From Norana najaformis (Eukaryota > Annelida > Clitellata > Crassiclitellata > Hormogastridae): a stretch of DNA of 64,000 nucleotides. This document shows, in pieces, positions 22,801 through 28,800 of the stretch. The stretch covers positions 18,288,287 to 18,352,286 of the forward strand of contig OZ029917.1 of assembly GCA_964023275.1 (NCBI GenBank). The letters are read 5' to 3'. Every line of letters begins with the position of its first letter. Position 1 is the first letter of the stretch. A program made the translations under genes and the position numbers. The notes beneath the pieces are model-generated. The model saw nothing but the letters and a program-made list of their open reading frames with translations. It did not search any database and was not told the DNA's origin.

Positions 22801-25800
22801 TCACAAACAGTTAGCTACATATTACAAACTGGAAAATGATATCTGTTTCTGTACTGACGTGAACGGCCTCATGCTGAATTTAGGTTGCGAATACGTTCCT
22901 GATCAGTGGAGACTGTTCATAGATTCCAGCCAAGCGAGCTTGAAAGCTGTGTTGGTGCACAATGGTAACGAAAAGCCGTCTGTTCCTATAGCCCACGCTG
23001 TAGGCCTCAAAGAGACATATGATTCAATGAAACTCATTTTGAAAGTGATCAACTACTCAGACCACAAATGGAACATCTGTGCAGACGTCAAAGTGGTAGC
23101 ACTTATTCTAGGCCTACAGCTGGGGTACACAAAACATATGTGCTTTTTGTGCTTGTGGAACAGTCGTGATGACAGCAACCATTACAAAGTGAAACTGTGG
23201 CCTCCTAGATCTGAGCACATTGTTGGTCGGCACAACGTGCAACACGAACCATTGGTTGATCCATTGAAAGTGTACTTGCCACCACTTCACATTAAACTGA
23301 GCCTCATGAGGAATTTCGTAGTGGCAATGGATCGTACTGGACAAGGCTTCCAGTATCTGAGAGATAAATTTGGAGCCGTCATAACTGATGCTAAGCTGAA
23401 GGCTGGAATTTTTATTGGGCCAGAAATCCGCGAACTAATGCGTGATACTGTATTTAGAACCAAGCTCAACCCACTGGAATTTGCCGCTTGGGATGCGGAT
23501 TGATTTAGTATAGTACACATAACATATGCCTAGTAGCAGGCGTTGGTGGTGCAAAACTTCCTTGGGAATCACCGAGCTGAGAACTATGCTGAACTCGTTA
23601 GCAACATGCTAACAGCATATAAGCAACTCGGCTGCCGGATGTCACTGAAAATACATTTCTTACATTCCCATCTGGATTTTTTCCCACCAAACTTGGGTGA
23701 TGTAAGCGATGAGCATGGAGAGAGATTCCATCAAGACATCTCCACCTTTGAAGCAAGATATCAGGGCCACTGCAATTCCAACATGATGGGCGATTACTGC
23801 TGTTTTCTGCAGCGGGCAACAGCGGCCACTCACAAGCGCAAGAGCAAGTGTCTAAAGCACTTTTGAACTTGTATAGAGTTAAGCTAGAGACAATATTTCG
23901 AAATGTATGCTTTCATCTGAGTAACATACATATATTTATATTACATTTTAAAACATATTTTAATTTCAAGTTATAAAAGAATAACATTTTGTTTCTTGTT
24001 ATGAATACTCAGAGTTTGCATAAGTACACAGTTATAAGGAAATACTAGTTCTGTAAAGAGTTTGCATAATTATTAGCATGTATGCTGCATATTTTAAGAT
24101 GCTGACGTGCTACACAAAATCTGACTTCAGATTTGGAATCAGCAGATTCGATTTAGTGTAGTACACATAACATATGCCTAGTAGCAGGCGAAAAATTTTT
24201 TCGTGTGATCCAGTGTAATTGGATCGATGTCAGATGAATGGATGGACGGACAGACTGATTGATGAATGGATAGATGTATTGATGAATGGATGGATGTATT
24301 GATGAATGGATGGATTGATGAATGGATGGATGGATGGGTGGATCGATCGATCGATCGATCGATCGCTAGGTCTATGGCCCACTGGATTGGTGATAAATGG
24401 CAGACTGTTTAAGACTGCATCTTCTGCCATGGCATACCTATAAATTGTTATGATTAATGTGTTGATATACTTTTATCTACGCGCTTGAATACATACGTAT
24501 CTCACCCATAACAGCTTTTTTAGCAGTAAATAGAGACAGAAAGATGATTGTGTAGCTTCTGGCAAACGGTCTGTGACGTCTGGTAGTATTTAAGCTGCAC
24601 GAATACAGTTATGCCGATTTCGTTTATGAGGCAATGTTTCTTTTATGTTAGGCCTACATTAGTAAAATATAAATCTTTGTAATTTGTAAATATAAATTCC
24701 AATCAGCACTCAGTAAAGGCTGAGCAACATGAATCTTCAGAGTAGAAAGCTTATAGTTTGCTTTCACTAGAGCGACTATACCAACTAAACTAGTCTAATT
24801 AATTAATTAATTAATTAATTTAAAAAAGTGTTATTGCACGTAAGTTTACTAATACCATTCAAACTACAACGCAGTGGAACAAAACTTCCCTGTAATAACT
24901 TAGAAGTGCTCTTCGCGATCTACGACTGAAATAGGTATTAAAAGGCGTTTCCTGTTAGATTGATATACCGACTCAGTTGCTTGGTCGTTGACTTACATGT
25001 TTTGGTAGGGAACGAAACGAAAGTTGGACAAATCGCTCGGTTATGGCCATCATTTCAAGAAGATCTAGACAGACAAAGACAGGCCCGTTGCTTGAAACAA
25101 TTGCAGAGCACAACCATTTACAAACGGATGGATAGATGCATAGATGGATGGAAGGACGGAGGACTGATTGATGAATGGATGGATGGATTGATTAAATTAA
25201 CTTCATATTTCGGGCCCTGTCTCATTACTGCTCAAATGAATTTTATTTTATTATTAATTAATTAAAGATTACTTAGTAATTATTTAATTAATAATTAATT
25301 ATTAAGTTCTATCGCTCCAGTGTCTAATGCACAAGGCATCAACCGATGGCGCACCAAAGCCAAGCCGCAGTCAGCCACCCAAGTGCATCGTTTCGTTGCT
25401 CGTTGTTGATAAGAAGTTTAATATAGGATGCTGAATGACGTCAGTGTCATTCTTTTCGAAAACCAGCTGCCAGCTTAAGTCCGAGAGGTAAGTCTTGGAA
25501 ATCATGGCTAAGCCTCTTTAAGGAACTGCAGATCTAAAGGACCAAATCAGGCAGACGTGGACAGACCGAGTTGACGGAGCATGTTTATTTTGCTCTGTAT
25601 GTACGCAGTCTCTTCAAAAGCTATGTCACCCTATTCTGGTCCCTGTTCGGGCTGACCCAACTGAGTACCGTGAGAGAGGGAGAAATGCAAGCCTTTACGA
25701 AGGTCATCGGTGAATACCTTCTTATGGTCTACCACGCGATGGCCGTCATCGTTCTGATAAACATGCTCATCGCCATGATGTCTAACTCTTTTCAGGAAAT

Positions 25801-28800
25801 CGAGGTAACGACGTCTTCTACTCCGTCTGTCACCTGTTGGATCCGCATCCCTTTGTCGTCTTTTGGCTCTGTTCACAGTGTCTTTTTCTCTTATAGCATG
25901 CGCCACTGCGTCACAGCACGTAATCACTCGCCTTCAGAGATTCTATTCATCAGTTATCTGCAGCACTGATGGTTTATTTCATTAAAACGGTTGAAGCGAA
26001 GTCAGAAATCGATACGAACTCGAATAAATCCTATAAGACAACAGAATAGACCATTTATCATTTTACCAGTATTTTACAAAATAAATAGCTTTTATGTGTG
26101 ACGCCCTTTCAAAAAGAAAATATGACTCTTATAATCATATGAACGAATAACGCATATAGCATCCTAATTACGAAATTTTACTGGTAGGTCTAATAAATGA
26201 CCTAAGTTATAGAATCAATCATCCTAAACCTTTTTCATAGAAATTAACATAATTAATAGTAACATATTCTCGCTATATTTTGGGAGGAAATTACTATAGA
26301 CCTACCTCCTTTCTAACTCCCCGTTCATTCACTAGTCCCAAAACAAAATTGAGAACAGAGCAACGAGTTTCCGCAAATTTAGTAGGACACGATTGACATC
26401 GATTTCTCCGGAAATAAGCCAGCAGTCTGATATCTAATTTCTTCAAAGCACGAATTGACTGAAACGGTTTTCCAAAGCCTTCGAATTACGTCCCCGAATG
26501 GAGCAATTTTATTGCAAACATTCCATGCCTACCAATCAATCAAAGTCGACGTCCCTTCAGAGCCAGCAGCACTGTCTCGATTTCCTGAAAAACAAGACTC
26601 ATTCGCACGCAAACAGAAATTCAATTCAATTTTATGCAGAAAACCTAGCGTTTGTCTTTCCGTCTGCACCGTCGGAAGGACTAGGATATGCCAGGCGCAA
26701 CGAGAATTTCATCTAAACTGCGTTGCGTTCCTGTTTTGCAGATTAAACACGTCCTTTGTAACGCTCTTTTGGACGCTGTTCGGCCTCATATCCCTCGTCG
26801 TGCTCGAGGTTAAACTGCGCTATATCGAAGGCTTTGGAAAGCTGCTTTTCGGGCTGTACAATGTGGCCGCCAGAATACTTTTTCTCAACATGCTCATAGC
26901 TATGATGTCCAAGTCATTCAACGTGACTGTGGTAAGCGGACGCGTTTTTATCTCTTTTGTAGTTCATTATTTCAGTTACTTGCCAGTTTATGCTGCAGTT
27001 TTCGTGATGCTTTTGACTGGCTTTCCGTGTCTTGGGATATGCACGTCAGAAAATTAACACACAAAGCAGCATTGCATTAATGTGATATTTTGTTTTATAT
27101 TGGACTCTTGCTTTAGTTCTTTCAGTTCAGTTTAGCATAGATGTGTTCAGTTTTGTTCAGTTCAATAGATAACATGGTTTGTCGTGTCACGCATCCATTT
27201 TGCCCTTCGTCAGCATGTTAGTGCAATGTCGTCGCCAGCTGTCTGTTTTGTTTAATATTTTGTCTGTCTGTCTATCTGTCCGTCTATCTCTATCTGTATA
27301 TATCAGTCTCTCTCTATCTCTCTATCTGCTATTTTTTAATAATGTGCTGATAAGTTTAGTTCTGATTATAATCTATTCCTGCTTTCATGTGTCCTCCAGT
27401 GGAATCGAGTCCCTGCAGAGTCACCTAAATATAGGCCTGGAATGTTTAGGAAAGGTCTTATTCCTCCTCCATCTGTCTGGCTTGCATTCACTCTTCTGCT
27501 CTACTTCAGCCTAATCATAATACAAACTTAATATTTCTCATACATGCATGTTGCACCGACCTATACATATGCAGCTCTTCCTCTCGAATACATAACAGTG
27601 TGTATAGACTATAAATGAGACATAAATGAGAGATATATACGATATATAATTATATATACATGAGAGCGAAAGAGTTTCTCTCAGCTGCATTTGTTTTAAA
27701 CTCGTGAGATCCTTGCGGATTTACATTCAAATCCTATTTGTCGGAGATTTCCGAGGATAAGAAATGACATTGAAGAGAATGGATTTCCAGCCCAATTGAG
27801 CTAATCCATTAGTCTAAGCTCCTCGCCGGGCAAAAAGCGCTACTGCGAAACCTTAAAGCTGACCACTTCATCATGCATGGATATTGAGGATTTGTCTGTA
27901 ACAGAGTTAACCTGCATGATAGGGCATTAGAGGCTATTACGATTGCATAAGTTGCGACAGGACATATTAGGGGCTATAACATTAGACGGGATTGGATAAC
28001 AAATGACATATCTAGCATCCTAATTTTACCAGTAATTTTCAAAATAAATGGCTTTTATGCGTGATGCCCTTGCAAAAAGATGCTCTTATGATCATATGCA
28101 CGAAAAGAAACATTCTAATTACGAAATTTTACTGGTAGGCCTAATAAATGACCTAAGTTATAGAATGCATCATCTTAAACTTTTTATCTAGAAATTAATA
28201 TAATTAATAGTAACCTACTATCTCTATATTTTGAGAGGAAATTACTATATAGGCTTACCTACCTCCTTCCTAGCTTCCCATTCATTCATTAGTCCTAAAA
28301 TCAAATTTAGAATATAGCAACGAGTTTCCGCACGGGACGGGATTGGATAAAATAAGATGACATATTGCAGGCAAGATTTAAGGACAATAGAAAGACGAAA
28401 ACATTCCAACTGGAATCTAGTAAAATAGATTTGTGAGCGCCTTTATAAAAGGCCTTCCTGTGCATATACAGCGAAAGTTCCTGCTCGTTTATAACCAAGA
28501 CAACTCGATTCCACTGCCGAAAACTTTAAAAACAAACTCATCTCATGTTCACTGTGCAAGCAATGGTATCGACTGTCGCGAGGGTGAAGATCAATGACTA
28601 TTGATTTAGCGTTGACTTGCGCTATCATTAATTGTCCATTCGTCCCAAGTGGTTTGTGGACATAATCGATGGGATGCTGGCCATCTAGCGGCGAATTCGA
28701 TATGCCTAACAGCGGCATTAATCCGCCGTAAAAGCCGCGACCCAGTTTACGTTACGACGGCAAAAAGAGAACCTTTTTCTTGCATTGTGCTTATTACAAA

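What the first reader, a model, noticed from the sequence alone, without database searches (positions are those of the whole stretch)
25609..26931. Two tandem, mutually exclusive pore exons in a TRPC channel gene
Seen: exons 5A (196 nt) and 5B (190 nt) both encode the same module (pore helix VTLFW.LFGL, filter, S6 [10 protein letters not shown]). Both start in phase 2 and end in phase 0, with intact splice sites. Including both or neither breaks the frame with exon 6, so a functional transcript must choose exactly one. The rest of the protein is shared. Inference: one gene makes two channels with different conduction properties. I do not know of this arrangement at the pore of a TRPC gene.
Basis: partly seen in the sequence, partly recalled or inferred. 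Interest (0 to 1): 0.92.

Follow-up and report, generated by a model that had tools for sequence, protein, structure and literature searches.

The report
Alternative TRPC pore exons, RNA-switch candidate
A worm-like animal's calcium-channel gene carries two interchangeable exons for the channel pore, and the stretch between them holds short sequences that can base-pair with one exon or the other, which suggests an RNA switch that picks the pore.

Summary
A complete TRPC (TRPL-like) gene, window 7668-35339, has two tandem pore exons, 5A and 5B, with intact splice sites. Either alone gives a full ORF (979 or 977 aa); both or neither gives an early stop. Both keep 5A-5B in the same order, lengths and phase, with dN/dS 0.017-0.060 and silent sites near saturation, so both exons are maintained. 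Decapod proteins also swap two pore modules at the same borders, and two Penaeus gene models contain both.

New here: the 5A-5B intron holds two elements in the same order in all three copies. B' is complementary to 16 nt inside exon 5B (one G.U pair in one copy). A' is complementary to the 3' end of exon 5A, up to its 5' splice site (shorter or bulged in two copies). The duplexes cross and compete in folding of the window copy. Most likely this is an RNA switch for mutually exclusive splicing; transcripts remain to be shown. Conduction differences are plausible (5B has an S6 arginine) but untested.

The parts
7668..7871 (+). coding exon 1 (start codon assumed; earlier exons possible)
14305..15093 (+). 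coding exon 2, ankyrin/TRP_2 region
15707..16061 (+). coding exon 3, S1-S2 region (inferred from homology)
18700..19252 (+). coding exon 4, S3-S5 (inferred from homology); ends with two bases of a codon
25609..25804 (+). exon 5A, pore helix-filter-S6, canonical type
   Evidence: conserved in the C13 and C8 paralogs
25789..25804 (+). last 16 nt of exon 5A, complementary to element A'
26469..26484 (+). intron element B' (TTTCCAAAGCCTTCGA), complement of exon 5B nt 84-99; identical in the introns of all three gene copies
26576..26591 (+). intron element A' (CTCGATTTCCTGAAAA), complement of the 3' end of exon 5A, with G.U/A-U pairs into the 5' splice site
26742..26931 (+). exon 5B, alternative pore helix-filter-S6
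   Evidence: paralogs
26825..26840 (+). site in exon 5B that pairs with B'
29751..30044 (+). coding exon 6, TRP box ([11 protein letters not shown])
33284..33399 (+). coding exon 7
34907..35339 (+). coding exon 8 with stop

Best explanation
5A and 5B are a functional pair of mutually exclusive exons that give one TRPC gene two pore/S6 modules. Shown: both exons, splice sites and the frame constraint are intact and conserved in three paralogous genes. Shown: the intron between them holds B', complementary to the body of 5B, and A', complementary to the 3' end of 5A (up to its 5' splice site), in the order 5A - B' - A' - 5B in all three copies, A' less perfectly in two of them. Inferred: the two duplexes cross and compete. 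When A' covers the 5A donor, 5A is skipped and 5B used. When B' pairs with 5B, its 3' splice site lies in the loop, 5B is skipped and 5A used. Products with both or neither exon shift frame and would be removed by NMD. Inferred: the 5B channel differs in conduction or gating, through the position above the filter (S in place of Q), an outer-pore loop two residues shorter and an arginine in S6.
For: Frame logic and full ORFs. Three of three copies carry the pair; NG86 dN/dS 0.023-0.060 (5A) and 0.017-0.037 (5B) with dS 0.97-3.9. Three strong 5B hits in 608 Mb, each beside 5A. The B' 16-mer is identical in 3 of 3 introns that share nothing else in all three at E < 0.5. Genome-wide the pattern TTTCCAAARCCTTCGA has 7 hits: 3 introns, the 3 matching 5B exons (one the A variant, a G.U pair) and 1 elsewhere; reversed control 0. 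Duplex energy against shuffled introns: B' reached in 0/300, 0/300, 0/120; A' in 0/300, 1/300, 2/120 (C5, C13, C8). B'-to-A' spacing is 107, 98, 132 nt. Synonymous codons inside the pairing sites are identical in all three copies more often than elsewhere: 5B 5/6 vs 11/46, P 0.008; 5A 4/5 vs 13/43, P 0.047. Window copy: transcript cut before 5B gives P(A'-5A) 0.97; with 5B, P(B'-5B) 0.99 and P(A'-5A) 0.004; the forced A' state lies 4.9 kcal/mol above. C8: P(B'-5B) 0.98. Decapod proteins with different modules: 92-96% identity upstream, 42-45% in the module, 84-97% downstream; with the same module, 91-100% in it.
Against: No transcript was seen. In C13 the B'-5B helix has P 0.97-0.98 in two local windows but 0.0025 or less when the whole 5A-5B stretch is folded. 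By the ungapped score A' is solid in C5 only: shuffles reach it in 77 of 1000 (C13) and 2 of 1000 (C8) for the last 16 nt, and for the whole exon 5A in 126 of 300 (C13) and 20 of 200 (C8); for the whole exon 5B in C8, 1 of 200. A' in C13 needs a bulge and its tile ranks 8th of 87; in C8 it is 12 perfect pairs and not among the top 8 tiles, and another 5B stretch (nt 109-130) pairs with that long intron better than the B' site does. The A' site was found in C5 and the B' site in the comparison of introns, so those tests are partly after the fact; the codon tests are small and uncorrected, and my first 5A count (4/4 vs 13/44) left out one codon that the site covers. Crossing helices with long loops are not strictly exclusive in space. 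The copies share ancestry.
Confidence: 0.72

Rival explanations
1. The exons are mutually exclusive, but exclusivity comes only from frame/NMD and splicing proteins; B' and A' are protein-binding or incidental sequences.
For: Frame constraint alone would remove wrong products. C13 full-length folding does not favour B'-5B, and A' is imperfect in two copies.
Against: Complementarity of B' to 5B in 3 of 3 copies, A' to the 5A donor end in 3 of 3 (one with a bulge), and near genome-wide uniqueness of B'.
Confidence: 0.18
2. The duplexes are editing-complementary sequences for ADAR: they recode adenosines in 5A and 5B rather than choose the exon.
For: Exon-intron duplexes of 12-20 pairs conserved in the intron and at silent sites of the exon fit such a layout; the ADAR layout is recalled, not looked up.
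Against: Two separate duplexes target two mutually exclusive exons, one ends on a 5' splice site, and they compete in folding of the window copy; the duplexes are short.
Confidence: 0.1
3. 5B is a poison exon: its inclusion together with 5A truncates the protein at codon 723 and so regulates dose.
For: 5A+5B gives a stop at codon 723.
Against: 5B is constrained as a channel protein (dN/dS 0.017-0.037) and is in frame on its own; a poison exon needs no conserved pore/S6 sequence.
Confidence: 0.04
4. 5B is a decaying duplicate.
For: 5B sits on a long branch among pore modules (2.46 changes per column before the three 5B rows split, tree).
Against: 5B is 92-94% identical to its paralogs while 5A is 86%, with intact frame and splice sites in 3 of 3.
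Confidence: 0.01

Closest known systems
NALCN exons 15a/15b and Cav3 exons 12a/12b of invertebrates (PMC4436565, passages read)
   Same: Alternative (for NALCN, mutually exclusive) exons that change the pore region of a cation channel in protostomes.
   Different: NALCN and Cav3 are four-repeat channels in which one repeat changes; here every subunit of a TRPC tetramer can change filter flank and S6. Selectivity effect untested here.
TRPM3 alpha1/alpha2 pore-loop splicing (PMC7959729, passages read)
   Same: Splicing in a TRP pore; there it alters divalent permeability.
   Different: [quoted passage not shown] here a whole duplicated exon with pore helix, filter and S6.
TRPL of Bactrocera dorsalis (PMC6137742, passages read)
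   Same: Mutually exclusive exons in a TRPL gene.
   Different: There the second and third exons, changing 18-21 N-terminal residues, not the pore.
Competing RNA structures in mutually exclusive splicing: Dscam docking/selector, srp bidirectional pairing (PMC6071210, abstract and introduction read); ATE1 (PMC11802352, passages read)
   Same: Conserved complementary elements around mutually exclusive exons, only one pairing at a time.
   Different: In what I read, those elements lie in introns or beside the exons; here each intron element pairs with coding sequence of an exon, one of them at the 5' splice site, both sit in the single intron between the exons, and the helices cross.

Membership tests
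TRPC (TRPL-like) channel | ankyrin repeats, TRP_2 domain, ion-transport domain above curated cut-offs | tested here: met
   Both isoforms: Ion_trans 107 and 97 bits, TRP_2 92 bits, Ank_2 44 bits
TRPC (TRPL-like) channel | LFW pore-helix motif, Gly filter, TRP box EWKFAR after S6 | tested here: met
   Alignments to TRPC4 structures; filter G577 numbering from PMC5951680 (passages); the name LFW motif is recalled
mutually exclusive exons | tandem homologous exons of equal phase; either alone keeps the frame, both or neither breaks it | tested here: met
   paralogs
mutually exclusive exons | transcripts with exactly one of the two | not testable with these tools
   no RNA data in the collections; decapod proteins with one or the other module are indirect support from another phylum
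mutual exclusion by a too short intron or by U2/U12 mixing | intron too short to splice, or mixed splice-site types | tested here: not met
   introns of 937, 520 and 4355 nt; donors of exons 4, 5A and 5B begin gtga or gtaa in all three copies, acceptors AG; read by eye, U12 consensus recalled
competing-RNA-structure splicing | conserved complementary elements near the exons | tested here: met
   B' and A' in 3 of 3 copies, A' with fewer pairs in C8 and a bulge in C13
competing-RNA-structure splicing | the pairings exclude each other | tested here: inconclusive
   exclusive in nested folding of the window copy, where crossing helices cannot coexist by construction; B'-5B not favoured in full-length C13; A'-5A folding not computed for C13 and C8
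competing-RNA-structure splicing | mutating a pairing changes exon choice and compensation restores it | not testable with these tools
   needs minigenes
Dscam-type docking site with several selectors | one docking site shared by all selectors | tested here: not met
   A' and B' are different sequences with different targets

The most novel reading that the evidence does not exclude
A bistable co-transcriptional RNA switch built from two anti-exon elements in one intron decides which pore a TRPC channel gets: A' shuts the 5A donor before 5B is made, then B' pairing with 5B displaces A' and frees 5A. The same pore-swapping arrangement exists in annelids and decapods, either very old or evolved twice, with one module type in this animal carrying a charged S6 not seen in the relatives examined.
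Probability: 0.4. Interest if true: 0.86.

Novelty: new variant of a known kind. Interest (0 to 1): 0.76.

Why it matters
TRPC channels act in phototransduction and receptor-operated calcium entry, and their diversity is usually ascribed to separate genes and mixed tetramers (recalled). Here one gene can change filter flank, outer pore and S6 in every subunit, by splicing, apparently in at least two phyla. The intron elements make the choice mechanism directly testable: two short sequences, each complementary to coding sequence, with clear predictions for single and compensating mutations. Coding sequence that must also serve as an RNA-pairing site adds a constraint that protein-only comparisons overlook.

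Tried and rejected
Two tandem genes instead of tandem exons: rejected, only 937 nt separate 5A and 5B and the frame with exons 4 and 6 is shared. 5B as pseudoexon: rejected by dN/dS and paralogs (NG86 worked for all six comparisons, YN00 for four of six). Steric or U2/U12 exclusion: not met. Common origin of the annelid and decapod pairs: a tree of 50 modules (65 columns) does not resolve it; AU tests reject none of three groupings (p 0.29, 0.41, 0.25). By order, 5A corresponds to the decapod first module; by being canonical, to the second. Other TRPC genes in this genome: a regex found one pore module in 5 of 9 fetched loci and none in 4. The 5B search gave 22 matches at E<=1, among them one in each of those 4 loci; only the three genes have two matches close together. 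That search used 5B as query, so weak duplicates elsewhere could be missed. Structure prediction was not tried. Literature: ten searches were answered; no title or abstract start in their lists described a TRPC pore exon pair. Passages of PMC10795286, PMC5096308, PMC6150509 and PMC7992859 were read and mention none. The library lacks most subscription papers.
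Full report
Observation. 5A (25609-25804, 196 nt) and 5B (26742-26931, 190 nt) have AG and GT borders, begin after two bases of a codon shared with exon 4 (ends 19252), and end in phase 0 before exon 6 (29751). They encode homologous pore-helix/filter/S6 modules (score 112; maximum of 500 shuffles 19), although their DNA has diverged. I completed the gene to 35339: the spliced ORF is 979 aa with 5A and 977 aa with 5B, stop at 723 with both, stop at 665 with neither. Both isoforms match Ion_trans, TRP_2 and ankyrin models, and their best solved relatives are TRPC4 and TRPC5.

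Genome. The window lies at G000:C5:18288287-18352286 of an unnamed assembly of 608,420,607 bases in 17 contigs. The nearest protein in the database is Helobdella robusta P0033 (988 bits, 63% identity; query isoform B, residues 60-760), so an annelid, probably a clitellate (inference). Its annotated protein has a 5A-type pore; whether its genome has 5B could not be examined.

Both exons are maintained. Two further genes of the same kind lie on C13 and C8. Both carry 5A, then 5B, then exon 6, with the same lengths, phases and GT-AG sites. Protein identity to the window copy is 86% and 86% for 5A, 94% and 92% for 5B. NG86 dN/dS is 0.037, 0.023, 0.060 for 5A and 0.037, 0.028, 0.017 for 5B, with dS 0.97-3.94. 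A genome-wide search with 5B gives three strong hits, one per gene; the next match, at E 6e-9, is another TRP-like pore.

Intron elements. Comparing the introns of the three copies, one word was shared by all three 5A-5B introns: TTTCCAAAGCCTTCGA. It is the reverse complement of 16 nt inside exon 5B (window 26825-26840); in C8 the exon differs at one base, giving a G.U pair. In the whole genome the pattern TTTCCAAARCCTTCGA has seven hits: the three introns, the three 5B exons and one place on C1; the reversed control has none. A second element, A', lies 107, 98 and 132 nt further on (C5, C13, C8). It is complementary to the last bases of exon 5A: 16 of 16 in C5, with further G.U and A-U pairs over the first bases of the 5' splice site; 12 of 12 in C8; and with a one-base bulge in C13. 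Against dinucleotide-shuffled introns the observed duplex energy was reached in 0/300, 0/300, 0/120 shuffles for B' and 0/300, 1/300, 2/120 for A'. An ungapped score agrees for B' at its site (0 of 1000 in all three copies) but is weaker for A' outside C5 (last 16 nt: C13 77/1000, C8 2/1000; whole exon 5A: C13 126/300, C8 20/200), and for whole exon 5B in C8 1/200 shuffles reach it. Ranked among 87 tiles of the two exons, the best four tiles in C5 are at the B' site and the fifth at A'; in C13 B' tiles lead and A' is eighth; in C8 other tiles lead, a B' tile is seventh and A' is not among the first eight. Codons inside the exon sites are synonymously unchanged in all three copies more often than elsewhere: 5B 5/6 vs 11/46 (P 0.008), 5A 4/5 vs 13/43 (P 0.047), small tests made after the fact.

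Competition. The order is 5A site, B', A', 5B site, so the two helices cross. Folding the window transcript up to 26620, before 5B exists, gives P(A'-5A) 0.97. Folding through 5B gives P(B'-5B) 0.99 and P(A'-5A) 0.004, and the forced A' state is 4.9 kcal/mol worse. The folding program allows no crossing helices, so exclusion is partly built in. C8 gives P(B'-5B) 0.98. C13 gives 0.97-0.98 in windows starting at 2950 or 3000, but 0.0025 or less when 2775 or 2579 onward is included. A'-5A was not folded in C13 or C8. Minimum-energy folding of a kilobase or more is a rough guide, and I take the conservation as the stronger evidence.

Protein consequence (inferred). Aligned to zebrafish TRPC4 (numbering of G577, S580, I617, N621 from passages of PMC5951680), 5A has Q and 5B has S at the position of S580, a site named there as important for calcium permeability in TRPC5. 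5B is two residues shorter in the outer pore. 5B has an arginine at the position of L609 in S6, in all three copies; 0 of 161 modules that a regular expression found in the 177 collected proteins has a charge in the nine residues before the S6 asparagine (proteins without a regex match were not counted). 5B also has K where 5A has N just after the lower gate, which is not unusual among relatives.

Other animals. In decapods, relatives of this gene carry either a 'GVIPLKEL' or a 'GISSPKSTDL' module. Homarus against Procambarus or Cherax: 95-96% identity upstream, 45% in the module, 93-97% downstream; Penaeus indicus against Procambarus or Eriocheir: 92-93%, 42%, 84-87%. Pairs with the same module are 91-100% identical in it. 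The module borders match those of the exons here. Two Penaeus models, 2 of the 177 proteins collected, contain both modules in tandem. Spider and scorpion proteins with different modules are 78-88% identical upstream and are probably separate paralogs. Whether the annelid and decapod pairs share an origin is unresolved. I could not read the DNA of those animals.

Known kinds. Alternative or mutually exclusive pore exons are known in NALCN and Cav3 (PMC4436565), pore-loop splicing in TRPM3 (PMC7959729), N-terminal exclusive exons in TRPL (PMC6137742), and competing RNA structures in Dscam, srp and ATE1 (PMC6071210, PMC11802352). What I did not find in print, in the searches listed under Tried and rejected, is a TRPC pore exon pair; I did not search specifically for intron elements that pair with the coding exons themselves, and saw none in the passages read. 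I therefore call it a new variant of a known kind.

Noticed in passing
G000:C8 (L030, reverse complement, exon 5B nt 109-130 against the 5A-5B intron, offset about 1811): In the C8 copy a further stretch of exon 5B pairs strongly with the long 5A-5B intron (15 pairs, one G.U); not among the best pairings listed for the other two copies.
   Followed up: partly
L030 reverse complement about 5868-5943 and window 25297-25374: A 78-nt stretch, 86% identical in opposite orientation, shared by the window's intron 4 (its copy ends 234 nt before exon 5A) and the C8 5A-5B intron; probably a repeat element.
   Followed up: no
window 22133-23863: Open frames of 456 and 109 aa inside intron 4; the longer has no Pfam match. 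Looks like a mobile-element protein or a nested gene.
   Followed up: partly
window 48033-49274: 414-aa open frame with a glycosyltransferase family 92 match (Pfam 32 bits, above cut-off).
   Followed up: partly
window 38208-39402: Minisatellite open in several frames (repeats of about 'CVVSAIRVCCIGYTCVLYRLY').
   Followed up: no
decapod proteins P0034, P0035, P0052-P0055, P0118, P0119: A short optional stretch before the pore module (such as DGGEYKGGFKT) is present in some and absent in others, suggesting one more alternative exon or splice site.
   Followed up: no
G000: Three copies of this TRPC gene on three chromosomes, and what looks like a three-copy set of another TRPC type (C11, C5, C4), hint at old large-scale duplication in this lineage.
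   Followed up: no
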